From the NCBI GenBank assembly GCA_009761415.1, contig QUOL01000004.1, positions 2,046,001-2,110,000 of the forward strand: 64,000 nt of DNA, given 5' to 3'. This DNA comes from Sarcomyxa edulis. Lineage: Eukaryota; Basidiomycota; Agaricomycetes; Agaricales; Mycenaceae. Numbering within the stretch: the stretch's first letter is position 1; each line of letters starts with the position of its first letter. Below, piece after piece: positions 14,353-30,263 of the stretch. The position numbers were made by a program, and so were the translations under genes. The notes beneath the pieces are model-generated. The model had not been told where the DNA came from and did not search any database. It was given only the letters and a program-made list of their open reading frames with translations.

Positions 14353-16057
14353 TCATATAAATCCACGACTGGGAGGTATGAAATAATTATCAGGCATAGG
14401 GCGATCGGTACCATAGTTCGGAGGGGCGTAAGCGATAGGACGAGGACCCCTTGCCAACAAAGTGGCGATCTCAATCGGGCGCTCCAGAAGAACGCCCGGA
14501 TCGCTCGCAGTAAATCCAGTCGCTTTGAACGGTAGCATCGCGATGGAATACTAAGCAAAGATAAATGAGGGTCCTGAAACTGTAATCTTGTAAGAAAACA
14601 CATACCACAATGCTGAAGTGAGCCATAGCCGACGTAGGTTTCAAGGATTTTGGGAGGTGGATTTCGCCGTTCAAACGGCGTTGATGTGGTTCAGTTGCAC
14701 TACTACCATCAGGAGATGGCCACCAAATAGCAGAATCAACGTCCTCGATCGTACCCTTCATCTCATCTTTCCCTTGAAGTTGACTCGAGCTACTACGTAG
14801 GAAGAATCCTACTCGACGGCGTAGACACAACGAGACAGACGAAGGAGAACACAACAAATCAAGAGCCTGTGGATCTTGACATTCCATAGTCAGAATGCAA
14901 GGAATGGTTGTTCCTCGAGTGTAACATAGCTGTGTAGACTGTCATGGACCCATCTGAAAAGGTGGAAGTGGCAACTACTTACAGGCTTTGCGAGTGCTAG
15001 CTGCAATACAAAGTCAGTCTCAGGTACAAGATTATTCATACACGGAACTTGACTCACTACGCAGTTTGCCTGTACGGAACGTGTGTTGAACACGGTTCCC
15101 GATACTTTGATACGAGGAAATGACTCCCATCCCTCAGGATCGGCTTCAGGACCTATCAACGGACTATTCTCCCGGTATGCCAGCTGCCGAAGCAAAGAAG
15201 GCGGATCGGGACGTATTGAGGGGACGTATGCAAACATGGTTTGGAGTCTGCTATCCACCCGAAACTTGGTGCGTTTGATATTAACGATGATATCGTACTG
15301 GAGTCCAACCTTCATGCCTCGGTCCATCGACGACTGGGGCAGACGATAGAGTTGTGCGGAGTCTCCTGGTTTTGTTGGGTCGCTAACTTCTCTTGGCAAT
15401 GTGATAGAGAAGGGCCACTCGTATTCGCCGGCAAGTTTGCCTCTATATCTCGCAGGGGTGGAGTCAGATGTGGATGTGGATGGAAGGTTTCTCGGATCGC
15501 CCATGTCTTTAGACCATATTGCGAATGATTGGTCCAGGAAAGTAATTTCTTCGATCACTCTTGTGCCAGTTACGATCTGTCCCCGCACCTGCAATTCAAT
15601 TGTATTTAGTAATAAGCTTTGCATCAACAATATGAATAATCTTTAGGACGAAAGCTTCGCGGGTAAAAGGATCTACGACAAGAATGAAGCAAAAAAAACG
15701 CACAGACATGCTTATCGACGAAATATGGTCGCCACTTTCAAGGTCTAACTTGATTGAGCCCTCAATCTTGTCACCTTCCAGAAACGTTGGCAATTGCTGC
15801 GGCGAAGGCGAGCGGCTAAGGACAACCAACGTCGCCCAAGGTTTGCCGCTGCTGGTTGATAAGTCGTAGCGGTGTTCAGTTCGCTGAACTTCTGGAACAG
15901 ATGTAAGTGGATGAGTAGCTCGGCGTGCATAAGCAGGAAGTTCCGGGTCAGACTCGGGGCCAAATGATTGTAGTATCAGCGATGAAGGATTCAGATCGTC
16001 GACATACTCTGGTGGAGAAACGGACGACATCGAGGGAGTGGTGGTGTATTGGAACAA
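14353..16057 (-). CDS. Alpha-arrestin-like protein 1
   Basis: A multi-exon gene with an arrestin fold in two halves. The N-terminal domain includes WATLVVLSRSP, LPTFLEGDKIEGSIKLDL and VRGQIVTGTRVIEEITFLDQ. The middle carries LLRQLAYRENSPLIGPEADP, the C-terminal domain starts LCYTRGTTIPC, and the end is MLPFKATGF followed by PRPIAYAPPNY. WW-binding motifs are visible: PPEY and LPAY near the N-terminus and PPNY near the C-terminus. Fungal alpha-arrestins use such motifs to bring Rsp5/NEDD4-type ubiquitin ligases to plasma-membrane transporters; that role is inferred. Translation may start at 16057 or at the second Met (16030), which better matches the short N-termini of the paralogs. It is the only arrestin here on the minus strand. 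Confidence 0.88.
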
Positions 16058-16629
16058 GAGGTTCGAGGCATATTTGTCAACTGCTTCAAAGCGAGGCAGC
16101 CAAATGAGTAACCGAGTCCCTGAACGAAATAGAACTCAAGAGTAGGTACGTGGGCGCCCTGTCTAAGTTTGATGAATACATGTGCACCAGCTCTCAGTCA
16201 AACGCACACGTGTAGATAGAGACATGTATATTCGACTTGTCCATATGGTACCATGATACCGAAAGGTACTCCTGTGAGAGCAAGAGTGTCGAGCTTTGTA
16301 CGGCTGTGGAGGTGGGCCTTGGAGGAGGAGGCTATTCGCCGTGAAGATCATTGTAGATCAGATCGCCGTTTTCATTTGATACACCCGAAGATTGAGGCGT
16401 TCGGAAGCGTACAGACTCGATTTTGCATTGACGTCCAAATCCAATGTTTTGGCGAATATATCGAGCAGGATTCGCGTCGAATTCAGAGGGTGAAAGGGAG
16501 AGCTCGAGAGGATGTGGAGAACAGCCCCCGGTGGTCAATACGCTAAAGTTCAGATGGGAGAACGAGGCGCGTTGGTCGATCGCGGTCCACTCTTTTTTTG
16601 GGCAAAGTTTCCCACCCTCAAGCTTTTCC
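16058..16629. other. Left flank of the transposon, 5' of arrestin 1
   Basis: 572 bp upstream of arrestin 1, cut from the rest of the intergenic region by the transposon. Open frames here match no family. It should hold the arrestin 1 promoter. Confidence 0.5.
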
Positions 16630-16636
16630 CACTGGC
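16630..16636. repeat. Target-site duplication, left copy
   Basis: CACTGGC lies directly before the left terminal inverted repeat. The identical heptamer follows the right terminal inverted repeat at 25474-25480. Confidence 0.85.
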
Positions 16637-17079
16637 TACGAAGCGCGGGAAGTCCGAGCTTCAAATTCGAAAAAAAAAACATTTGATCTGCAAGTGAGAC
16701 TGCGAATCCCATTCCTCAACCTGTGTCAAAAGTGTAGTTTGAAGTCGCAGCCTTATTACATTGCGTAGATAAGTGTACTAGGTATAACGATATTAAAGAG
16801 GGAAAAAAACTACCGCAACGAAAATCGAACCCACGACATCATGTTTATCTCGCACAGAACAGAAACTCGTAACCACTGCACTACAGAGGCATTGATAATC
16901 AGTCAAATGTAGAGGCTATATCGCGCGATCATTGTCACATGCTCGTCACGGCCGCGAGTTCACTACTGGTTTTTCGACAACATTTTCTGTACACCGGGGC
17001 TCCACCCACTAAGCTCTAGAATATATCGGAATACCTTCTAGGTATACTAGCCTACCTACCGTTTTTTTCCCTAATACTT
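16637..17079 (+). repeat. Left terminal inverted repeat of the transposon
   Basis: Matches the reverse complement of 25029-25473 along its whole length with only scattered differences and small indels. It contains an A-run (16668-16677), a tRNA-like unit on the minus strand, and the block CTGTACACCGGGGCTCCACC that recurs further inside. Confidence 0.92.
16811..16890 (-). ncRNA. tRNA-like Pol III unit in left TIR
   Basis: Read on the minus strand it starts GCCTCTGTAGTGCAGTGG, giving an A-box-like block, and carries GGGTTCGATTTTC as a B-box. On the same strand it is followed by a 7-T run (A-run at 16803-16809) that would terminate Pol III. The D and T stems pair poorly, so it is tRNA-derived rather than a working tRNA. 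Confidence 0.6.
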
Positions 17080-17298
17080 GGAAGCTGTTTCAACCACAAT
17101 ATCTCGATATCTCTTCTATGCCTCAGGTTACATTGTTGTCATGTGTGTACCATCGCCCTCACCGCTCCCAATCTTTCGCCGTTTTTCATGAATATTTTTC
17201 TGTACACCGGGGCTCCACCTACTAAGCTCCCAAATATAGTAGAATACCTTCTGATCATGACCTTTCACCTGCCTCTCTTTTTTCTAATACTTCGGTGG
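16980..17298 (+). repeat. Subterminal direct repeat, two copies
   Basis: A ~100-bp block at about 16980-17083 recurs at about 17195-17298. Both copies contain TTTTCTGTACACCGGGGCTC, ACTAAGCTC, AATACCTTCT and CTAATACTTGG. The first copy is inside the TIR; the second lies just inside the element. Such repeats can be transposase-binding sites, but that is inference. Confidence 0.7.
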
Positions 17299-17914
17299 AG
17301 TTTCCATTATCTTATGGTGATGCCTTCCCCTCGCTTTCACCCGGGCGTGACTATTTGTCACGTCACACGCACGCGTCACCTTAGTTTGAGATTCCATAAT
17401 GTCTCCGTATTGACTCCGCGTACACTCAAGCACCACCAAGTCAAAGCGCGTAGAGGTGCTAAATTAAGCATCATTTTCCATCGGTAGAATGGTCTTCAAT
17501 GGTGCGCCCTATCATACCCTTGCATGACATCGCAATAATGCTGATGAATCGATGTGCTCCACAGCCCAGTGCATGCTATTTGACCTGCAGAACGTAGGCC
17601 AAGGCAGACACCAGGACCTCATCCAGTAGTATTGTCACTTGTATCCTGTTGCTCTGACAATAAGGGACAATCTTGTGGTCTAATTCAAATATTTGAGGCG
17701 TCCAGAGTGTTCACTCCACAAGATCCCATGTCTTTACAATAGGCTAAACCGGCATTTCGATGGCGCCACTTGGAGTGGTCCCTGCTCCCCTTGAGATTTG
17801 AACGATTATAAGGTAGCTCTCAACTCACCTTTTTTTCTCTTTCATCTTTCGTCTTTCGTCTTTCGTCCAAACTCCCCCCATATCTGGCTATACTTTGTCC
17901 TTCTTATTCCTGTG
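17299..17914 (+). other. Leader region upstream of the transposon alpha-kinase gene
   Basis: About 600 bp without a convincing gene. It has GTCAC and ACGCGTCAC motifs at 17347-17380 and a CTTTCGT-type pyrimidine-rich tract at 17829-17875, just before the start codon, like fungal core promoters. Confidence 0.5.
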
Positions 17915-20384
17915 ATGACCGACTCTCAGCCTACCAATGACCAGCCTTGTGGAGGTCCGGACAACGAGCTGGATGGTTGTCTTGAGATCTTTCCTCGTGG
18001 ATCTCCAGGCCTTTGTTCAAAATGCAAGAAGATCGCTGCTCCTGATCAGTCTCAAGAGGACATCCAAGCCATCAAGGTGAGCGATATTCTTGTTTTCTGC
18101 TTAGACTTCTTGATTATAGACATACTCTTTGATTTAGGGTTTTGCTCAGTGTTCTAGCTGTGGCCTCTGCGGTAGAAACCTATCGTCCGATCCTTGTGGT
18201 ACATGCAAACGGCTGGGTTAGTGACTTCGTATCCTTTGTCACTTTTCCTTGCTAATCTAAATTAACAAGATCTTGCGACACGAGGGGAACAAGACCCTTC
18301 AAAGGCTTCAAGTGTAGCTCTCCGAAAGGAGATGCTCAATCACTCTATAGGAGGACGCCCTGGCATTCCACTCAATACCGCCGTTGCTACCGGCCTCGTA
18401 GGGCCTGCCACTAGCCATGCTGATCTTACCTTGATTCGTGGTGCAGCCTCCTCAGGAGGAAGTATGTGGACTATTATTTTTTCCGTTCGGCGTGGAAATG
18501 TGGTGGACAAGCATTTTGGAACTGGAACGTTGACATTCCCTTCTGAGACTAACATGTCCAGTACGTTCCATCCACCGAGTATTTATCTCTGATTTTGAGA
18601 CTAAAATCATTGTCTATGTAGCGGTCTTAGAGGACTTAGTTCTTCAGGTGAATCCTCGGTGGACTAAGATAGAGGGTCATACCCAGGACTTGAGCCCGTA
18701 CGTTCTTATTCTTATCAACTATTCTGTATGTCCATGTCCTCATCTATTTCTTTTCCTCAGAGATGATTGTGAACTTCGCTTCTCAAACAACATAAACATC
18801 GCTCCCTTTGCCAAATCACTCACCATCAAAGCGTTTTTTGAATACTATAACTCACTCCCAGAGAAAGAATTGGTTTTGAATAATACCTCTAAGCTGAAGC
18901 TAGCAAAAGGGTCGGTCCTCCAGCTCGAGGTTTTTGTCGATGAGAATAGGGTTAGTCTCCGAGTTTTCAACCCTATGGATCAAAACCACATTGACCTATT
19001 TCACTTCTTCTAGTATACGACCCGTACAGCCATGCCAGCTATCAATGACAGCTTCAGCACCTCCAATAAGCGTAAGGGTACCTCTAGGACTAGCTCAGAA
19101 AAACGGGCAAAAGGAAGTAAGTTGACAATCCCTTATCTTATCTCGAACCATCTATCCCTGAACACGACCTTCGTATTCAAGTGAGCGGGACCATCCTCAC
19201 CACAACCTTTGGGAGTACAAGAGATTCCAAGTTCTTCCAAAAGCCCAAAGTTGTCAAGACCGACGTCGTAACATTCAAGACCATGACATGCGTTGTTGAC
19301 TCAGTCAGTGGGGAAGAATATATTTCGGAGAGCTCTAGGGTTAGAACAGGGGATCTAGCAGTTGAGACCATGCATGTTCCAGTAGGCTCAGAGGGGAGGT
19401 CAAAGCAGGTGTTTCTGGTGCGTCATTATATCTTGTGCTGTCAATCGTACCCACTAATTGTGGGCTGTATTTTTTGAACTAGTTACGCATTGACGATCAA
19501 CAATACGTTGCCAAACGCTTCCTTGATATTGGTCTTGGACCTGGCAATGGGCTGCAACAGAACGAGAACCTGTTAATCAGGGATTTGATTCGTCTCAAGA
19601 TGATGGATATGTTCAGGACACTGTTCTTCCAGTTGGGAAAAGACTCGGGCATTGAATTGGCTGGTACGTTTCAATATTAATATCTATCATCTCTCTCTCT
19701 CAAGTTTTGTCCACCATTTTTATCGCCAGACTTCACTGTTTCGGACGGGTTTGTTATCAATACAATAACCCGCAACGGTGTAGAGGAACGACACGCCTAT
19801 CTTGTTGAGCCCCTACGTTCCTCCTCCGTTGTCACAAAATTTAGCGGAACATTGGGTACCAATAACCATACGGACAAGCTGTCTGCAACAATCTCAGCGT
19901 TTGCTCACTTCGTGATGAATCATACTGCATCTACTTTCTCTCTTGCCGATATTCAAGGTATGTTGCACCGCTTCTATGACGTTTGTCTGTATTTCATCTG
20001 GCTCTTATTCAAGGATCGATGCATGCAGAACCTGGCCGTGTCCCTCAGCTCGTTTTATTTGACCCTATGGCTCATACGCTCTTTGGGTGAGCACTTTCTG
20101 TTCAGTCTAAAATGATACGTCTCTTTCTGACGTGTTTCCCGCATATATTCAGACACTCTGGCCTTGGAGACCTCGATGTAGATGGAATCCTTGACTTCAT
20201 TGATAGTCATGCATGTACGAACACTTGCCTTCGCTTCCGCTTCCAAGTGGAGGATCTCCGTGACGCTCTTGAAGCTGCCAAACTAAACAAGGCTGTGATT
20301 TTGAAGGAGCAGGATATAGCTCTTGAATCTGGGGAGCAGGTTGACGATTATGACTCTACGTTCGAGATCCACCAAAGCACTTGA
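17915..20384 (+). CDS. Alpha-type protein kinase in the transposon
   Basis: A gene with about nine introns, coding for roughly 600-650 residues. The N-terminus is Cys-rich (GLCSKCKK, then CSSCGLCGRNLSSDPCGTCK), a probable zinc-binding region. The C-terminal domain is an alpha-kinase: QYVAKRF supplies the ATP-binding Lys, RDLIRL and a DIQG motif follow, then LVLFDPMAHT. The end has the glycine loop and zinc-module signature, SGLGDLDVDGILDFIDSH followed by ACTNTC. This atypical Ser/Thr kinase family is expanded in Agaricomycetes. The gene lies wholly inside the element, upstream of the transposase in the same orientation. Key residues are present, so it may be active. A role in transposition is not known and is only suggested by linkage. 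Confidence 0.85.
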
Positions 20385-20698
20385 TGTGTCCACCTCTCCT
20401 TCGAATTCTTCATAGGTACGCACTTGTATGTAATTGTAGGCTCACTGGTATCCTAGTAGCACATCTTCATCTTCCATTACCTCTATATACTGGTTATCTT
20501 TTGTGCATAGATCGTACCAGAATCTATCAAACTTTGTGATTGAAAGAGCTTGGAGAAATACTGAACGGCCTTTGGCATTCCGGACGCTCAGTTCAGTCGG
20601 TCCGGTACTTTCTTGGTCACACTTCAAGTTGTCCCTACCACAACCGTCCTTCTCTGTGTTTTTTCACTCCTCACTGCATCACTGTCCTAGTTACTGAG

Positions 20699-22352
20699 AT
20701 GGTCAATGCTAGTGGATCTAACCAGCATGCCTCTAAAGACTGTAAGACACGAGTATACGGATGGTCAGACGTCAGACTGATGAATAAATAATACAGATCC
20801 TTCGGATGACGCTCTTCTTACTGCATTCGAACAATATAGCCGTGAAAACAGTGGCTCTGGCTTGAATTGGGAAGACCAGGTTGCTCGTCTGGGTATTGAG
20901 TTCGACTTACATTTGAGGTAAGTGTTGAATATCAAGATGTCTAGGATGTGCCGACTGACTAGTGACAACTTCAAGGCGTTCTACTTTGTTCAAATTACGC
21001 AAACGACTCAATGTAGGTTCGGTACGGAAAAACAAGAGCAAAATGGATCCGATAGACACTATGCAAAAAGTGCTTGATCTCAAGTCTAGTGATGTCCAAG
21101 GGCGATGGGGCGTCGCACAAGTGAAGCAAAGACTTGCAAATGAAGGCACTCTGATTCCCCGGTGTGTCAACACATCCTGAAATGAGACTTGGGTTCTAAT
21201 AGACTTGATTTTCTAGCGATAACCTGCGTATAGTTCTTCATGACCATTTTGACGACGAATTTGTCGATCGATTTGTTGGATCAAAGCGTAAGAGAAAGAT
21301 CCGTACACCCTTGAATGCACTAGGTCCATGGCATCAAGAGCATCAAGATGGCCACGAGAAAATGGCTCAGCAAGGACTAAATATTGGTGAAGGTATACAT
21401 CTTCCAATTTACGCGTCAAAGGATCAATTTTCGGCGTATGTCCATGCACTGGTCCTTATGCCAAAAGTGCGTACCAGTATGACTATGGCCCACTACTACC
21501 TGGACCTAGTAGAAGCTCGAGGAAGTGCGTATATTATTTTCTACATCTGTGACCATATCTAACACGGATTTGTAGACCGTATATCCCTCCAATTGACGAC
21601 TGACAAGGGTACGGAGGTGAACGAGATGCTGAAAATTCACGACGTGTTACGGTACATACCTTCCAGTTCTGGTTGCATCTGATGACCTGATCCAAGTCTA
21701 CATATGTTGCATTACAGACTAGAAGCTGCACCTGAGTACCAGGCTCCCGAATGGCCTGCATCCGTACAGATAGCTAGCACTGGAAATACCCCCATTGAGT
21801 CTTTCTGGCGCTGGCAACGAGAAGGTGAAGGCCATACCCTGAAGTTTGTTATCCAATCTGGGTCAGCAGCAGGCTGGTTTTCTCCGGTTGAGGACCTTCA
21901 AGTGTACGTGAAACCCAAGCCTCTCTGTCTGCCATAGCGCTCATGATATAATACATCTTACCAGAAAAACCTTTTATTGGCTCTGGGTACCTCTAATCCA
22001 GCAACACTTGGATTTATTCCGAGAATACTGGAACAACCACCGCCTTTCCCCGAGTAAAGGGAAACTCAATCCATCCAAGAAGTCGCCCCGCCACATGCTT
22101 GTTGCCCCCCAAACCGTCTCCATGATTGCCCACAACTGCTCCATTGGTATCAACCACGATACCCTACTTCACCTGCGAGAAGCGTATGGAGGTGAAGCGG
22201 CGCGCGATGCTGCCTTTCGCTTTGTCACCGCAGAATTTCAGGCGGAGGCAGATGGTGCATATGTTGCGTTGGGCTGCCCCAATATTTCGATTGGGACAGC
22301 GTGGAATGTTTTTCGAGCCGTGGTGAAAGAGTTGGAGAAGCTTCGTCAATAA
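20699..22352 (+). CDS. D-D-E integrase-core transposase
   Basis: A multi-exon gene of about 440 residues. A helix-turn-helix-like N-terminus (LHLRRSTLFKLRKRLNV) and a spacer resembling GRWGVAQVKQRLANEG lead into an RNase H-type integrase core. Candidate catalytic residues are the first Asp in WHQEHQDGHEKM (near 21347), the second Asp in LTTDKGTE (near 21602) and Glu in NTPIESFWRW (near 21797). The tail VPLIQQHLDLFREYWNNHRL is the usual integrase C-terminal helix in fungal elements of this type. The start ATG at 20699 is followed by a short first exon ending near 20741. It lies 314 bp after the alpha-kinase stop, in the same orientation, and is the natural candidate for mobilising the element. 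Confidence 0.82.
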
Positions 22353-22423
22353 GGACTATGATGTATAGCTGTATAACATATATATGCAAGAATATTTAGA
22401 GATAAAGATTACAATAAGCATAA

Positions 22424-24843
22424 CTATAAATTAAGAAGAAGTCGTTTATCCGCAGATAAACGACGTCGCTTTGGGGCTGGAGGATCATCCAACTTATCTT
22501 CAAGTTGTACCGGGGAAGCCTGATTCTCGACGAGGGACGTCCCCAAAATCGTGGCTTTGGAAGGTGGCTTTTCCGAGGCCACAACTTCTGCCACCTCATC
22601 ATCATCATCACGCTTACGCTTCCCCTTCCCTCGTTCCTTTCCCTTTCCCTTCTTGGTACCTTTCTTAGGGATAGATACTGCTTCCTTTCTTTTTCCCAAC
22701 TTGACTCGGCTCCTCCTCTTGATACCCTGCTCAAGACGAGCCACGATGTAGGAAGGCACAGTAGGATCGTTTCTGCAGATAACAATACTAAGAAGAGATT
22801 AATCTAAAGATATAAATGACAAAGAAAATAAACGACGTACTGCCCCAAGAATATATGGCCTATACCACAATAATCAAGTGGTCCGACGGCGTATTCATTC
22901 GTATGTTTCACAATGTAGTCGAACAGCTGTTTCTGGCGAGCAGCACCTACCACCAGAGTGACTTCTGTATTGGGGCCCTTACCCCCCCGGCGCCTGAGAC
23001 AAGTGGGCATAAATAATTGAGATGGTGTCAATGCAAACCAAGAAGGAGACGTACCGTCTGACAAGACTGGAGGGTCTGGTCATGGGAAGAGAATTCGAAG
23101 GAAATGCACGGACAAGTGACCAAATAGATTTCTCATTCGAGTTGTAGAGATAGGTATGAACCCAAGATTCTCGAAGAGAACCAACGAAAAGGGAAGCCAA
23201 AGGCCGAGGATCTAGATAGGTGGGAGTAGTGGACAAGATGCCTAGTTGCAAATATATAAATGAACTAAATAAACTGGAGGATCGAGTACGCACCATGGGC
23301 TTCAAAATATCCGTCGAGAGGATTGTCGTGCCAAACCGTACCCCCAAGATCTATCCATGCAGTTTCACCAAATATAAGGTGACCCAGATTCTCTGGTTTG
23401 GTAAGAGATGTTTCTAGATAGGAAGGTTCGAAAACATCGAACAAATTTTGTGAATAATCACGAGGCCAGACAGTATCCAAAGCAGCCAAAGTATCCAGCC
23501 GTTCCTGAGAAAAGAAATACGGTGATTTATCGACTCAAAGTGCAGAACAATGCAACAACGTACGTGATACGAATCCCAAAGCTGTCGCATACGCTGCGGT
23601 ATATAGCAGCGGTCACGGGCATACACATTAAGCCATGACCGGAACAGAAGACGGTCATCATTGTTGACCGCCAGAGAGAATGTTCCGTGAAGAAAGGGTT
23701 GAACAAAGTTCCTGTCAAAAGATCACGTATATATATATATATAAAAGAAGACACTCAAAAAGGACCGTACCAGAGATGTTTGTGTCCCTTCTCAATGTGG
23801 GCATATAACGCCTCACAGAACCGAGCAAATCGGGATGGAACATCAAAGACTTCAGCCTCGGTGAGAAAAGGAGAAAGCCCTGTATGCCATGTAAGTATGT
23901 AAGCATCTCAAATCTTGAACAATGGGAAAGCACTCACCTGCTCTGAAAAACAGCTCACATACTGTATACACGCCAACTCCCCCAAAGACCGTCGCAGCTT
24001 TTCGTATAGCATTGACAGCAAGACCGTCTCTGTTGCTTCCTTGACGCGATTCAGCCCATTCTACGGCATCTGACAGGAAAGTCGGAAATGCCAGGTAGAC
24101 ATCAGCATGTTGGGCGGGCAGACTCTCTCTCGAAAACGCCCAGTTCGGCTATGTACAGGATTGATACGTGTCAGAGGAACGGAACTACGACAGAAAGTGA
24201 GGGACGGACCGTGAACATCATATCTAGCGTAAGAAACGTTAGAACGTAATCGTCGAAGTCTAATGCCATTCCAATTTTGAAGCCTCTTGACTAGTATGAA
24301 AGTCGTTTAAGAGAGAAGAAAGATGTAACCAATACTAGGAAGTCACCTTCTTATCAACCTTCGACAGTATATCATCCCATTGGCTGCGGCTAAAGATCTG
24401 AACGACGGTATGAGTGAGCATTTGAACCTATAAGGGATATGAGAAACGGTGGAGTTTAGCACATAGTATGACAGAAATTAATGTATAGAACAGCGCACCT
24501 GAAGCCATAGCTCACGTTCCCCATATTCAAACTGCAATATCACGTTCCGTGGATTGAACAACACGTCTCGAAGTCGAAGTTTTGCCCCAGCAATGGTTGT
24601 GTTGCCAATTGGTGGATATACCTCTTTGGGAGCAAAGCGTGGCCCTCGAGCAACGCGTGATCCAGGTTCAATAGAGTACGCATGGCCTTGAGAAGCTAAA
24701 GAGGATGAGGGTGCCCTTTTTTGCTCTGCATCGGTCGCATCCAGGTAGATTGAGAGGAGGATGAGGGTGCATATACTCTTGACAGAGTTGTACCAGTAGT
24801 TTGCCAAGGAGCACGAGGTTATGGACTCAAGTACCTCAGGCAT
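22424..24843 (-). CDS. Large unrecognised protein of the transposon, basic C-terminus
   Basis: A gene with about nine small introns, converging on the transposase with ~70 bp between stops, and starting ~190 bp inside the right TIR. The product is roughly 600-650 residues. Recognisable stretches include FNPRNVILQFEYGERELWLQ, DFDDYVLTFLTLDMMFT, ADVYLAFPTFLSDAVEWAES and DTVWPRDYSQNLFDVFEPSY. The C-terminus is strongly basic, with KKGTKKGKGKERGKGKRKR and a second KRRR cluster, likely nuclear localisation or DNA-binding. I do not recognise the fold. The acidic motifs could suggest an enzyme, but I cannot assign one. Its position makes it a third structural gene of the element. Confidence 0.65.
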
Positions 24844-25028
24844 TGTGTACTGAGGGTCTGTAATGTAAGTGAGAAGTAATGCGAGACTTTGGCGAGAGTC
24901 GACGGCGGCGACGCGACGCGTTGATTGTTGAGAGCGACGAGAGTGTGACGTGACAGAGAGTCACTCAGTCCGAGTCTCAGGTGGAGGCGAGGTGAAGGTG
25001 TTGTGTTAACTTAACAGAGACTGCATAG
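24844..25028 (-). promoter_or_regulatory. Promoter of the transposon's minus-strand gene
   Basis: 185 bp between the start codon and the right TIR. It contains ACGCG and GTGACGTGACAG clusters (24912-24965) like those near the left end of the element. Confidence 0.4.
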
Positions 25029-25473
25029 AAGTATTAGGAAAAAAAACGGTAGGTAGGCTAGTATACCTAGAAGGTATTCCGATATATTCTAGAGCTTAGT
25101 GGGTGGAGCCCCGGTGTACAGAAAATGTTGTCGAAAAACCAGTAGTGAACTCGCGGCCGTGACGAGCATGTGACAATGATCGCGCGATATAGCCTCTACA
25201 TTTGACTAAATATCAATGCCTCTTTAGTGCAGTGGTTACGAGTTCTTGTTCTGTGCGAGATAAAGGTGATGTCGTGGGTTCGATTTTCGTTGCGGTAGTT
25301 TTTTTTCTCTCTTTGATATCGTTATACCTAGTACACCTTATCTACGCAATGTAATAAGGCTGCGACTTCAAACTACACTTTTGACACAGGTTGAGGAATG
25401 GGATTCGCAGTCTCACTTGCAGATCAAAGTTTTTTTTTTCCGAATTTGAAGCTCGGACTTCCCGCGCTTCGTA
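25029..25473 (-). repeat. Right terminal inverted repeat of the transposon
   Basis: Inverted partner of 16637-17079. It contains the second tRNA-like unit and ends CGCGCTTCGTA at base 25473, directly before the 7-bp duplication. Confidence 0.92.
25218..25298 (+). ncRNA. tRNA-like Pol III unit in right TIR
   Basis: Starts GCCTCTTTAGTGCAGTGG (A-box-like) and carries GGGTTCGATTTTC (B-box). An anticodon-arm-like hairpin, TCTTG / CGAGA around a 7-nt loop, is present. A T-run at 25299-25306 follows directly. The T arm pairs mostly through G-U and the acceptor stem does not close, so this is a tRNA-derived sequence. It points out of the element, as does its twin at the left end. Confidence 0.62.
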
Positions 25474-25480
25474 CACTGGC
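25474..25480. repeat. Target-site duplication, right copy
   Basis: CACTGGC, identical to 16630-16636 on the other side of the element. Confidence 0.85.
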
Positions 25481-26463
25481 ACTCACCGTGACCTTGACAA
25501 GCTGCCCCGTTCTATTTATCCAGCGTTATCTCTGTTCAATTCTATGGTGAGTTCTCGTAGCTCGAAACTCACTAATCTGCGCTTTTATAGGTACAAATAG
25601 GTCCCTTGCGGCCTATTACCCTTCGTGCTCATAGAATTTCCTACTGTGGCGCATTGAGAAGATTGGTGAGCCCAATATTAGTATCTTGTCCTTCTATGCC
25701 TCTTGAATTTACTGTTATCTCTCAGGCATCTGTACATTAACATGTGGTCTTCTCATCATGGCTGCAGCTGGACCTACTGTAAATCTACGAGGCTGTCGAC
25801 ACACGTACCGTAGTGGCACATCGTGTGGGGCTCGATACGCCCTTTCGCCACATAGCAAGGAGGTTTCGCGTCAATATTGAAGTCCCAGCTTTTTGGCTGC
25901 GTACTGGGCCTGGTACCACGCTGCCCTTCGCCACAGAAATCACCATTACAGCAGAGAAGCTCCATTGTCTTCGGCCCATTGGACTGCAATCGATGAGAGC
26001 CTCCCTGTTAGTCGCGTGAACTTACATATTTGCTCTTCCGCTTTATGAGTCTTGTAGTTGATTTGTTAACCACGTACTTTGTACGCGTCCCTTCTGGTAT
26101 TGACTGCACTGATCTGCCGGGAAAGCGGCTACTAGTATACCGCGCCTGTCCTATTTATCGCTTTTGCGTTTAGTTTATCGTGTTGGATGTACAATTATAG
26201 AATACCTTGGTATCTCGAAAATATCAGCCCCTGCTCTACCTAAGTCCTTTCGTGTTTGCATCCGCCGACAAAGATAGTAGGAGATTCCGAAACGTGGTAT
26301 CCTGAAAGCGCGACGACGCGACTGAAATTTTCCCAAACGTTTTCCTCCAGACATAAGCAGAGCGCTCGAAACTTTACGACCTCTCATGTCAACCCCGGGT
26401 CATTTCCCACTTCCATTCTTTACTTGATACGTCTCATAAATCTACTTTTAACCGCCGTTAGCT
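25481..26463. other. Right flank of the transposon, 5' of arrestin 2
   Basis: 983 bp between the element and arrestin 2. Before insertion it was continuous with 16058-16636. A short open frame at 25813-26019 matches nothing I know. The last few hundred bases should be the arrestin 2 promoter. Confidence 0.5.
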
Positions 26464-28250
26464 ATGAGCTTAGCCTACTCGAGATCCAGACGAGGTCGTT
26501 CTCTACTTCCGCCGCCTCCGAGTCTTGGCGCTACCGTTGATCCAGCACCACCTGTATACCAACCAGACGACCTCGCGACCCCTACGTTCGTACCGCCTTT
26601 ACCAGAACTTCCACCGTACGCGGGAAGACGATCACCAATACATCCGCAGGTGTCTCAGACCAACGGAATTCAGCCTGCGGAGTTCAAGTATGAACTGAAC
26701 AGAAAGGGAAAGGCGTGGGCTACGTTGAAGGTCTTTGGAAATGCCATCTTTTCGAAGCAGCTACCGACGATCTTGGGCAACGAGAAGGTGTCAGGGGAGG
26801 TTACTTTGAACCTAGAGTCTCCCGATTCCATACAGGCGCTTAGTATATCGGTGAGTCAAGTCTGTCAACAGTCTCTGGTGTCCTTTCGGCGCGTCCCTGA
26901 GCTTACTCGCCGTGGGGAGTATTCTTTTGTCCCTCTTTCTTCTCGAGTCTTCGAGTTTTCCAAAGAATCTGTCGTCTTAGCCTGATTTTTGGCAGATAAC
27001 AGGAAAGATTATAACTGGAGCTGGACAAGGCAACGTATATACTTTCCTTGACTTTTCTACCCCACTATGGTCCAGAGCTATGGGTGACCCCAGGCGCACT
27101 GACTCACCACCGCGCGAGAAGTTTCGAGGAAAACTCCAAGGCGAATACTTTTGGCCCTATTCATTCACACTTCCCCAAGAACTCAGCATACCCTTTGGGC
27201 CACGGAATGAATCCCACACATACCACCTTCCTCAGTCATTCTTAGAACGGCATACCAGAGCCAGCATCCAATACGACCTCATTCTCCATATAACACGAGG
27301 CAAACTTCGTCCAGATAACAGGTGATTTTTCCAGCGAACTTCTCAAGTTACCTTGCCCGACTAAATGATATATCACAGGCTGGAAACCACATTCGTTTAT
27401 ATTCCAATTTCGAAGCCCGAACCTTTTTCTCTACTGCGACAGTTGGCTTATCAAGAGAATAGTCCACTCATGGGACCAGATGCCGATCCCGACGGTTGGC
27501 ACACGTCTGCTCCTGTTTCCATTCGCGGGACTGTTTTCCAGAACCGCGTCGCTGAGGTACACTGCACTGTAAGTTTGTTACTTGATCTATATAGCGCTAA
27601 ACTGATCCATTGCACACTTGTTCCAAGCTCTCACTCGCAAAACCTGTAAGCATGTATCGCTCGCAATGTCTCCGAATTTCTCTTTTGACTATCGCCTCTC
27701 CAGTTATGTTATACGAGAGGCAGCATTCTTCCCTGTTTTTTGGTCATCCAGTGTAAAGATCTGCAAGCTATTGACTTGTTATCTTCGCCAAGATCCGTCG
27801 TCGTACGCTTGCGACGCTGCGTCAAATACCACGGTAGCGGTAATGAAGGAGTAGAGGGTCTTCGTTTCAGTGATGATATCGATTATACAGAATCAGCTTC
27901 TTGGTGGCCAGCAATGGAAGGTGCTACCGACGAAACTTATAAACGTTTTCTGAGCGGAGAGATACGTCTCAAACAAGATCTCAAGCCTTCCTCTTCTATT
28001 GTCAACTTCCGCATAGAGGTATGCATGATTATCATTCAAACTCTGTGAGGATTTGTACTCAAACGACGTCCTGTTTTATCGTCAGTATTCTGTGGTGATG
28101 TTCCCCTTCGATGCCACAGCATTCGTACCTGCCTCTGCTGAGGGGAAATATCTACTCGAAGAACCTGTCGAAATCGTCACAGCATACGGCTCAGGTCCAC
28201 GCCCACACGCTTACTCCCCTCCGATTTACAACCGTCCTATTCCGTTATAA
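26464..28250 (+). CDS. Alpha-arrestin-like protein 2
   Basis: First of three tandem plus-strand arrestin genes; several introns. Exon 1 (26464 to ~26850) encodes a Pro-rich N-terminus and the first arrestin strands (WATLKVFGNAIFSKQLPTIL). Later exons give LSIPFGPRNESHTYHLPQSF, LLRQLAYQENSPLMGPDADP, VVVRLRRCVKYHG and VVMFPFDATAF, with PRPHAYSPPIYNRP near the end. WW-binding motifs: PPVY and LPPY N-terminal, PPIY C-terminal. Exon order and splice positions match the other copies, so it arose by duplication. No internal stop forces a pseudogene call. The likely role is as a ubiquitin-ligase adaptor in endocytosis of membrane proteins. Confidence 0.87.
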
Positions 28251-28668
28251 ACTGCCCGCCGACTATTCGATTCCCCACTCTTTATCCTCATTATCGCTAT
28301 GCCCTCTTTGTCTTCCTATTCCTCCCTCATTACTGGATTGGCTCCGACTCGGAGTGCCTTACAGGTTCTGATATATCTTTATTTCCTTTTCTTGGACTTT
28401 GTGTTGTTGTTGCCTATTAGGATTGTACCCGATACTATCCCTCTCCAATGCCACATTATCATCTTCGTACTGATGGTCGGATACCTGCTTCAATGCTTGA
28501 TTCTATACAGACTGTTGCGTTGCTAAGTATATCTTCCCCCCAAGTCCTCGGTCCGTCAGAACCGATCTTTCCATCTCACATTTCTGAACGCTTGTGATTG
28601 ACAGGTGGACCTGAGTGCGAATCGAACTCTACACCGAGCTTAACCTCCGAACTAACCACAACAGTCCT
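28251..28668 (+). other. Spacer between arrestin 2 and arrestin 3
   Basis: 418 bp of pyrimidine-rich sequence, presumed 3' end and promoter. Open frames here are low complexity and look non-coding. Confidence 0.5.
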
Positions 28669-30263
28669 ATGGATGGCCCTCCCTCATACGATTCAAACGT
28701 GTCGCCAGCGCTGACCGTTAGCCATGATCCTGAACTTCCCGCGTATTCACGTCGTCCGTCTCCTTCACGGAGGACTCAAGTGACGCCCGTCGTACACGAC
28801 TATCAGTTGGCTAGTCAGTCCGGGAGGGCTTGGGCTGTTTTGAAATTACTTGGCGATCCAGTGTTGTCCAAGCAAATCCCGACTTTTAGAGAGGGTGATG
28901 ATATCACCGGGACTTTGGTGTTGAGTCTGAAGAGCACGGACCCTATACAAGCAATCAAAGTATCGGTGAGAAAATTGCATGATATAGATCAATGAATGTT
29001 TACTCATTGATATATAGGTGAGGGGGCAGGTCACTACTGGCTGGGCAGATCGAGAGTCCGTTATTTTTCTGGACGAATCGACGACGTTATGGTCGAAGGC
29101 GATGGGGGATCCAAGGAATCCTAATAGTAGCCCACAGAGCGAGTACAACGGGAAGCTACTTGGAGATTACATGTGGCCATTCTCCGTCAGACTCCCTCCG
29201 AGCGTCACTCTTACAGGAAACTCGGGAGGAACATTCAAGCTTCCTCAATCGTTTGTGGAACGAGATACGCGAGCTAGCGTCCAGTATGATGTTGTCGTTC
29301 GGTTTGTTCGTGGCATAATGAGGCCTGATAGCGAGTGCGTCTCTATATGAAGCAACTTACTGAGGCTAACGGGATATATCTAACAGACTAGAAGCGCGAA
29401 TAGCATATGTCACTCTCAGCAAGCCAGAACCACCTTCATTACTTCGACAATTGGCATATCAGGAGAATAGTCCTCTTCTTGGTCCAGATGCGGACCCAGA
29501 GGGATGGGAAACATTCGAGCCGGTCAATCTCCAAGGAAAGATATTCAAAAAACGTCATGTGAATGGAACTTGCAGGGTGAGTGTTTCTCATGAAGGTGCA
29601 TCTCAAATTAACTCGATGTATAAATAGCTCTCTCTTGCGAAGCCTGTGAGTGTCGTTTTTGCCTCGACCTGTGTAGAGCACTTATAAATACATTCTTAGT
29701 TGTGTTATACCAGAGGAACCGTGGTCCCATGTTATATGACCATCGAATGCGAAGATCTCCAAGCTCTCGATCTATTGTCTTCCCCCGATGCCATATCCGT
29801 CCGTTTATCACGCAACGTCACTTGCCAGGAATACGGCGGTAGAAATCCCACTGGTCAGAAATGGGACGATCTAGTCGAGTATGACGAGTCGGCCGTTTGG
29901 TGGCCTGCACTGAGTGGCGCGCCCGACTTGAACTCGAACCAGCGTCAGATGCAGGGTGAGATCCACTTGAAGGAAGACCTGGCTCCATCCACCAAGATTG
30001 CTCATTTCAGTATCAAGGTGAGGCGTGTTATATTACGTGCAGTTGAACCGTTATTCAGGATTCGTTTCCAGTATACCGTCGAACTCCATCCGTTCAAAGC
30101 CGTTGCATTTACACCAGCAGACAAAAGAGTTCTCCAAGTGGTACCTATTGACATTGCTACAGCACACGCAGTTGGTCCTCGTACAAGAGCCTACGCTCCC
30201 CCTGGTTACAAGTCACAGAATCCTGCTATCGCTGACTTTCAGCACACACGCGAAACGATATAA
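28669..30263 (+). CDS. Alpha-arrestin-like protein 3
   Basis: Starts at the ATG giving MDGPPSYDSNVSP, so PPSY lies at the very N-terminus and LPAYSRR follows. Exon 1 ends after IKVS near 28963; the next exon begins VRGQVTTGWADRESVIFLDE. The middle has LLRQLAYQENSPLLGPDADP, and the C-terminal domain starts LCYTRGTVVPC. The end is RTRAYAPPGYKSQ, giving a C-terminal PPGY. Stop TAA at 30261-30263. Intron positions match arrestins 2 and 4. It appears intact. A MITE lies 137 bp past its stop. Confidence 0.87.

What the first reader, a model, noticed from the sequence alone, without database searches (positions are those of the whole stretch)
16637..25473. An 8.84-kb DNA transposon combining an alpha-kinase with a D-D-E integrase
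Both ends are visible: 444-bp TIRs starting TACGAAGCGCGGG and a perfect 7-bp duplication (CACTGGC). Inside are an integrase-core transposase, an alpha-kinase and a third unrecognised gene. I know of no described superfamily with this gene set: Ginger, IS3EU and Polinton elements share an integrase of this kind but not the kinase. Near-identical TIRs and intact frames suggest recent activity.
Basis: partly seen in the sequence, partly recalled or inferred. Interest (0 to 1): 0.88.

Follow-up and report, generated by a model that had tools for sequence, protein, structure and literature searches.

The report
Fungal transposon with glycosylase-fold gene
This is a real, apparently recently active jumping gene of a fungus that carries, besides its cutting enzyme and a protein kinase, a gene whose predicted shape and active-site start match DNA-repair enzymes that cut out damaged or modified DNA bases, which suggests it may erase the chemical marks its host uses to silence it.

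Summary
Window 16637-25473 is a complete 8,837-bp DNA transposon with ~444-bp TIRs (TACGA...TCGTA), a 7-bp TSD (CACTGGC) and three intact intron-containing genes. A second copy, 99.1% identical over 8.7 kb, lies elsewhere in the same 35.6-Mb genome with all three frames open.

Alpha-kinase genes inside IS3EU transposons are already in print (Kojima 2025, PMC12730594, rust fungi), and transposase, termini and an older kinase-integrase element in this genome point to an IS3EU-like element. I do not file it as IS3EU: its TSD is 7 bp, not the usual 6, and the phylogenetic test could not be run.

The parts
16630..16636 (.). Left target-site duplication CACTGGC
   Evidence: identical to 25474-25480
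16637..17080 (+). Left terminal inverted repeat, begins TACGAAGCGCGGG
   Evidence: 13 mismatches + 4 gap columns of 446 against the right arm
17196..17252 (+). Subterminal repeat of a TIR segment (57 nt, 88% like 16983-17039)
   Evidence: D1, I3
17915..20384 (+). Gene A: alpha-kinase, 11 exons, 611 aa, with an N-terminal Cys-rich region
   Evidence: model; PF02816 E 1.4e-17 on the first 625-aa model; a profile of gene A and 10 homologues matches myosin heavy chain kinase A in PDB, E 8.3e-16
20699..22352 (+). Gene B: integrase-type D-D-E transposase, 7 exons, 435 aa; D161, D229, E272
   Evidence: model; PF24764 in 33 of 33 aligned family members at E <= 0.01; gene B itself E 6e-4, 20 bits, below the curated cut-off of 26; catalytic columns
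22424..24843 (-). Gene C: Fpg/Nei (NEIL)-fold protein, 10 exons, 624 aa, begins MPEVLE
   Evidence: model; AlphaFold pLDDT 83.7; Foldseek and VIA-align to NEIL1/Fpg; 0 of 29 members match a Pfam glycosylase family
25030..25473 (-). Right terminal inverted repeat, ends ...CGCGCTTCGTA
25474..25480 (.). Right target-site duplication CACTGGC

Best explanation
An autonomous IS3EU-like cut-and-paste DNA transposon. Gene B is the D-D-E transposase that cuts at the TACGA...TCGTA ends and makes a staggered insertion (TIRs and TSD shown; catalysis inferred). Gene A is an alpha-kinase with an apparently complete active site, probably acting on the transposase or a host factor (role inferred, unknown). 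Gene C is a very diverged Fpg/Nei-superfamily protein (fold predicted twice, catalytic N-terminus seen in sequence). Most likely it is a bifunctional glycosylase/AP-lyase or a derivative that acts on modified or damaged bases in the element's DNA, and so counters cytosine-methylation silencing or repairs deamination products, as TET/JBP enzymes are proposed to do for related elements (inferred). My sub-confidences: transposon of the PF24764 type 0.97; gene C of Fpg/Nei fold 0.95; catalytically active 0.55; anti-silencing role 0.35.
Against: Sequence-level support for Fpg/Nei is weak: hhalign probability 12.3%, E 0.0024, 42 columns; no glycosylase match in Pfam, PHROGs or NCBIfam for 29 members; only a chance-level PDB sequence match. 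The H2TH Asn is Val in 28 of 28 rows, and the sequence has no CxxC..CxxC zinc finger. The position I take as Fpg Lys57 is Arg in 25 of 25 (correspondence inferred). The selection signal comes mainly from gene C: A has 2 synonymous and 2 nonsynonymous differences, B 2 and 3, too few alone. Divergence is uneven (gene A exons 0.22%, gene C exons 0.96%, TIR 2.4%), so conversion between copies may confuse it. Gene C linkage to this transposon is shown only in two near-identical copies of one genome; by shared contig length only 1 of 28 gene C hits shares a contig with a gene B hit and 1 of 28 with a gene A hit (tables). The older kinase-integrase element on C4 has no gene C match, and a gene C paralogue on C1 stands alone. 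The element is more CpG-depleted inside (o/e 0.79) than the rest of the window (0.98), the Plavaka insert (0.96) and the C4 relative (0.93), which does not favour escape from methylation. TSD evidence is one insertion.
Confidence: 0.5

Rival explanations
1. Gene C keeps the Fpg/Nei fold but is a non-catalytic or lyase-only DNA-binding accessory of transposition (end recognition, nick processing or gap repair), not an anti-silencing enzyme.
For: H2TH Asn replaced by Val in 28 of 28 rows, no zinc finger, large C-terminal extension with a conserved basic tail; the element needs DNA processing at its ends in any case.
Against: P2/E3/E6 kept in 23, 22 and 24 of 24 rows, more than DNA binding alone should need; the older C4 kinase-integrase element has no gene C match, so it is not required by all relatives.
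Confidence: 0.3
2. Ordinary IS3EU transposon; gene C is a passenger host gene caught once and irrelevant to the element.
For: A lone gene C paralogue lies at C1:3978902 with no significant transposase or kinase match in the 10 kb held; gene C linkage elsewhere is not shown.
Against: Purifying selection on gene C between the copies (11 of 447 synonymous against 4 of 1428 nonsynonymous); 28 homologues in many genera, two of them on contigs of 2-3 kb; no such passenger is mentioned for IS3EU in the passages and sections I read.
Confidence: 0.15
3. A new superfamily distinct from IS3EU, because of 7-bp TSDs, long TIRs, and transposase and kinase on the same strand.
For: TSD is 7 bp, not 6; end TACGA, not TAYGG; same strand, not opposite.
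Against: TA..TA termini, no HHCC (no Cys in residues 1-160), first catalytic D at residue 161, inside the 100-300 range given for IS3EU; the alpha-kinase partner as in rust IS3EU; a related element in this genome with TACKG ends and opposite-strand kinase.
Confidence: 0.15

Closest known systems
IS3EU/GingerRoot DNA transposons, in particular the TET+ IS3EU families of rust fungi (Kojima 2025, PMC12730594; PMC10045372 of 2023)
   Same: Integrase-type DDD/E transposase without HHCC, TA..TA termini, alpha-kinase as second gene, a third gene encoding an enzyme of DNA-base chemistry.
   Different: TSD 7 bp against usually 6; TACGA end against TAYGG; ~444-bp TIRs; transposase and kinase on one strand; third gene Fpg/Nei-fold instead of TET/JBP and placed outside, not between, the other two.
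Fpg/Nei (MutM, NEIL1) DNA glycosylases
   Same: Predicted fold over 256 of 270 residues of NEIL1, MPExxE N-terminus, H2TH-like motif.
   Different: About 13% identity in the structural alignment, no Pfam match, Val for the H2TH Asn, no zinc finger, ~350 extra residues, resides in a transposon.
TET/JBP-carrying KDZ, Plavaka and other fungal transposons (Kojima 2025, PMC12730594)
   Same: A transposon carrying an enzyme that may act on DNA modification of its own copies.
   Different: Unrelated enzyme family and, if active, base excision rather than oxidation.
Alpha-kinase family (MHCK A, eEF2K, TRPM7)
   Same: PF02816 domain; the family profile aligns DxQ, GxG and HxCxxxC regions to MHCK A.
   Different: Transposon-borne, with its own N-terminal Cys-rich region and unknown substrate.

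Membership tests
IS3EU/GingerRoot superfamily | Termini TA..TA | tested here: met
   TAC...GTA; criterion from PMC10045372 section 3.3
IS3EU/GingerRoot superfamily | TSD usually 6 bp | tested here: not met
   7 bp at the window copy; the C8 copy has no direct TSD
IS3EU/GingerRoot superfamily | TAYGG..CCRTA ends of the TET+ rust families | tested here: not met
   TACGA..TCGTA here; the older C4 relative reads TACTG/TACGG
IS3EU/GingerRoot superfamily | No HHCC; first catalytic D 100-300 residues in | tested here: met
   0 Cys in residues 1-160; D161, D229, E272
IS3EU/GingerRoot superfamily | Transposase groups with IS3EU in a tree | not testable with these tools
   No Repbase IS3EU sequence at hand; supplements not available
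IS3EU/GingerRoot superfamily | Alpha-kinase on the opposite strand (TET+ rust IS3EU) | tested here: not met
   Kinase and transposase both on + here; opposite strands in the C4 relative
Fpg/Nei superfamily | Fpg/Nei two-domain fold with H2TH | tested here: met
Fpg/Nei superfamily | Catalytic N-terminal Pro2 with Glu3 and Glu6 | tested here: met
   MPEVLE; P2 23 of 24, E3 22 of 24, E6 24 of 24 rows with an N-terminus; sequence only, geometry not inspected
Fpg/Nei superfamily | H2TH asparagine (GVGN) | tested here: not met
   Val in 28 of 28 rows
Fpg/Nei superfamily | Zinc (or zincless) finger with catalytic Arg | tested here: inconclusive
   No CxxC pair in the gene C sequence; a zincless finger could not be assigned residue by residue
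Fpg/Nei superfamily | Profile match (PF01149 and relatives) | tested here: not met
   0 of 29 members; the genome has one separate PF01149 match at C1:3161723
Fpg/Nei superfamily | Glycosylase/AP-lyase activity | not testable with these tools
   Needs a bench assay
Alpha-kinase family | PF02816 domain over cut-off | tested here: met
   64.8 bits against 21.3 on the first, 625-aa gene model
Ginger1 | HHCC domain upstream of the core; 4-bp TSD | tested here: not met
   No Cys in residues 1-160; TSD 7 bp; criteria from PMC10045372

The most novel reading that the evidence does not exclude
The element carries a selfish base-excision enzyme: a transposon-borne Fpg/Nei-type glycosylase that removes methylated, oxidised or deaminated cytosines from its own copies and so defeats host methylation. 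It would be an excision counterpart of the TET/JBP enzymes carried by sister elements, and it would found a new Fpg/Nei clade.
Probability: 0.3. Interest if true: 0.9.

Novelty: new variant of a known kind. Interest (0 to 1): 0.7.

Why it matters
If gene C is active, DNA transposons have taken up base excision itself, and a family whose 28 hits are all named only 'hypothetical protein' gains a predicted function that can be tested. It also offers a reason why alpha-kinase genes are so numerous in some fungi. PMC4469406 (passages read) calls the family highly expanded in rusts; part of that may be transposon cargo (inference). The same genome holds integrases of the same Pfam family close to TET/JBP-like exons at two places, so alternative DNA-modification cargoes of one transposon group could be compared within one host.

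Tried and rejected
Considered and rejected: Ginger1 (HHCC and 4-bp TSD not met). A segmental duplication: blastn of window 16001-26500 against the C8 stretches stops at the element ends, though only 211 and 261 bp of C8 flank were in that comparison. An RNA or tRNA gene in the TIR, which I suspected from A/B-box-like letters: ARAGORN found 0 and Rfam gave one chance match, E 0.62. Viral-contig relatives of gene B or C: none confirmed, 0 of 101 and 0 of 24 candidate stretches. A TA..TA TIR with 5-8-bp TSD around five related places (six fetched stretches, L072-L077): none. PDB sequence matches for gene B or gene C profiles: only chance-level ones.

Led nowhere: the C8 right flank was read from the wrong orientation and one search failed to find it; the reading I use is from L009. 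The contig-sharing check used a typed subset (30 of 101 B, 8 of 22 A, 6 of 28 C rows); I then compared the full tables by eye and found the same four pairs. Literature: 10 searches, of which only named glycosylases. None of the papers listed was, by its title and the start of its abstract, about an Fpg/Nei protein in a DNA transposon. Papers read: PMC12730594 (abstract, passages, section 4.1), PMC10045372 (passages, section 3.3), PMC4469406 (passages). The library lacks most subscription journals, so absence from print is not shown; whether Repbase already holds such an element was not checked.

Recalled, from no call: that Pro2/Glu3/Glu6, Lys57 and the H2TH Asn are the Fpg catalytic or binding residues; that NEIL1 has a zincless finger; which alpha-kinase motifs are catalytic; that the named host genera belong to Agaricomycetes.
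Full report
What is there. The element spans 16637-25473. The arms differ at 13 positions plus 4 gap columns of 446. The three genes are intron-rich: alpha-kinase A and transposase B on the + strand, gene C on the - strand facing B. The junctions of my models are GT-AG in the window copy and in the second copy (one search was set to print exceptions and printed none).

Copies. A TIR search of the 35.6-Mb genome gave 7 matches that resolve into two elements. The copy on C8 is 99.08% identical over 8,707 columns; the match stops at the element ends. A, B and C are open in both; gene C of the C8 copy has one extra in-frame codon. Changes, gap columns counted, are fewer in coding sequence (27 of 5019) than in introns (25 of 1525). 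Synonymous differences outnumber nonsynonymous per site in the three genes together (15 of 1169 against 9 of 3850) and in gene C alone (11 of 447 against 4 of 1428). Genes A (2 and 2) and B (2 and 3) alone have too few changes to say. So gene C appears to have been kept working during the element's recent life. Divergence is uneven along the element, lowest in gene A exons (0.22%) and highest in gene C introns (2.9%) and TIRs (2.4%), for which I have no explanation beyond possible conversion. The C8 copy's far TIR is broken by a ~6.8-kb insert with a 594-aa frame that matches PF18759, Plavaka transposase, E 1.9e-89. Its outer flanks are not a direct duplication but a 25-bp inverted repeat, which I cannot explain.

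Transposase. PF24764 (integrase core) matches 33 of 33 members of the gene B alignment (33 of the 102 sequences at hand, gene B included); gene B itself scores below the curated cut-off. D229 and E272 are invariant and D161 nearly so; spacing is 67 and 42 residues, and there is no Cys before D161. Of 101 homologues at E <= 0.001, 98 carry a species name, of genera I know as Agaricomycetes. Two of the nine longer than 460 aa are read-throughs of a kinase into the transposase in the same order as here.

Relation to IS3EU. PMC10045372 gives TA..TA ends, usually 6-bp TSDs, no HHCC and a first D at 100-300 for IS3EU. Kojima 2025 reports that TET+ IS3EU of rusts carry transposase and alpha-kinase in opposite orientation with TET/JBP between them (PMC12730594). 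The present element meets the termini, protein and kinase criteria, but not TSD length, the TAYGG end or strand arrangement. An older relative on C4 (about 251518-257045) has transposase and kinase on opposite strands and 26-bp inverted ends reading TACTG/TACGG, with no TSD found and no gene C match. I therefore call it IS3EU-like and do not file it as a member.

Function. An enzyme that kept the nucleophile Pro and both Glu is more likely active than not, but the changed H2TH and missing zinc finger leave room for a binding-only role. The host has PF00145 DNA methyltransferase matches at three places. CpG sites show excess transitions between the two copies (22 of 778 against 31 of 3217), about equally in each copy, as expected if both have been methylated. 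CpG is depleted inside the element (o/e 0.79), more than in the Plavaka insert (0.96) or the C4 relative (0.93), but not in the TIR (26 seen, 20.3 expected). So a target for anti-silencing exists, and the element has not escaped CpG decay; that gene C counters silencing is inference.

A parallel in the same genome. Two of six TET/JBP-like exon matches (PF12851, all six below its cut-off), at C12:112496 and C9:559007, lie 2.3 kb from PF24764 integrase exons at C12:115040 and C9:561550; no kinase was detected there. They suggest that PF24764 elements here carry alternative DNA-modification genes.

Verdict. Observation confirmed; interpretation partly right. The kinase is known cargo of IS3EU; the glycosylase-fold gene is, as far as my searches show (two of ten named glycosylases), not described in a transposon.

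Noticed in passing
G000:C8:496686-496710 and 512340-512364 (L008, L009): The second copy's outer flanks are a perfect 25-bp inverted repeat of each other instead of a target-site duplication; cause unknown.
   Followed up: partly
G000:C8, L009:113-6903: A ~6.8-kb Plavaka element with CATCAGGAAAA inverted ends is inserted in one TIR of the second copy.
   Followed up: yes
G000:C12:112496-115601 and G000:C9:559007-562111: TET/JBP-like exons (below the family cut-off) about 2.3 kb from PF24764 integrase exons, facing each other, at two places.
   Followed up: partly
G000:C4:251518-257045 (L073:4019-9546): Older kinase plus integrase element, genes on opposite strands, 26-bp TIRs, no gene C match, no TSD found.
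   Followed up: partly
L075:4400-6942 (G000:C1:3978902-): A lone gene C paralogue, also starting MPEVVE, with no significant transposase or kinase match and no TIR found in 10 kb; possibly a host gene or a remnant.
   Followed up: partly
window 14400-16100 (-) and 26450-30260 (+): The insertion lies between two divergent groups of genes that read like arrestin relatives, apparently tandem copies; of three pieces tested one gave a weak Arrestin_N match below its cut-off, two none.
   Followed up: partly
window 16983-17039 and 17196-17252: A TIR segment is repeated once more just inside the left TIR (57 nt, 88%), a possible second transposase binding site.
   Followed up: no
G000:C5:58934-60041 (L074): A PF02816 kinase exon next to a weak gene B-like exon on the other strand, possibly a decayed relative.
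   Followed up: no
P0142/P0106 (Mycena filopes) and P0096/P0123 (Mycena polygramma): A distant kinase and a distant transposase homologue share contig lengths with gene C homologues, hinting at wider linkage.
   Followed up: no
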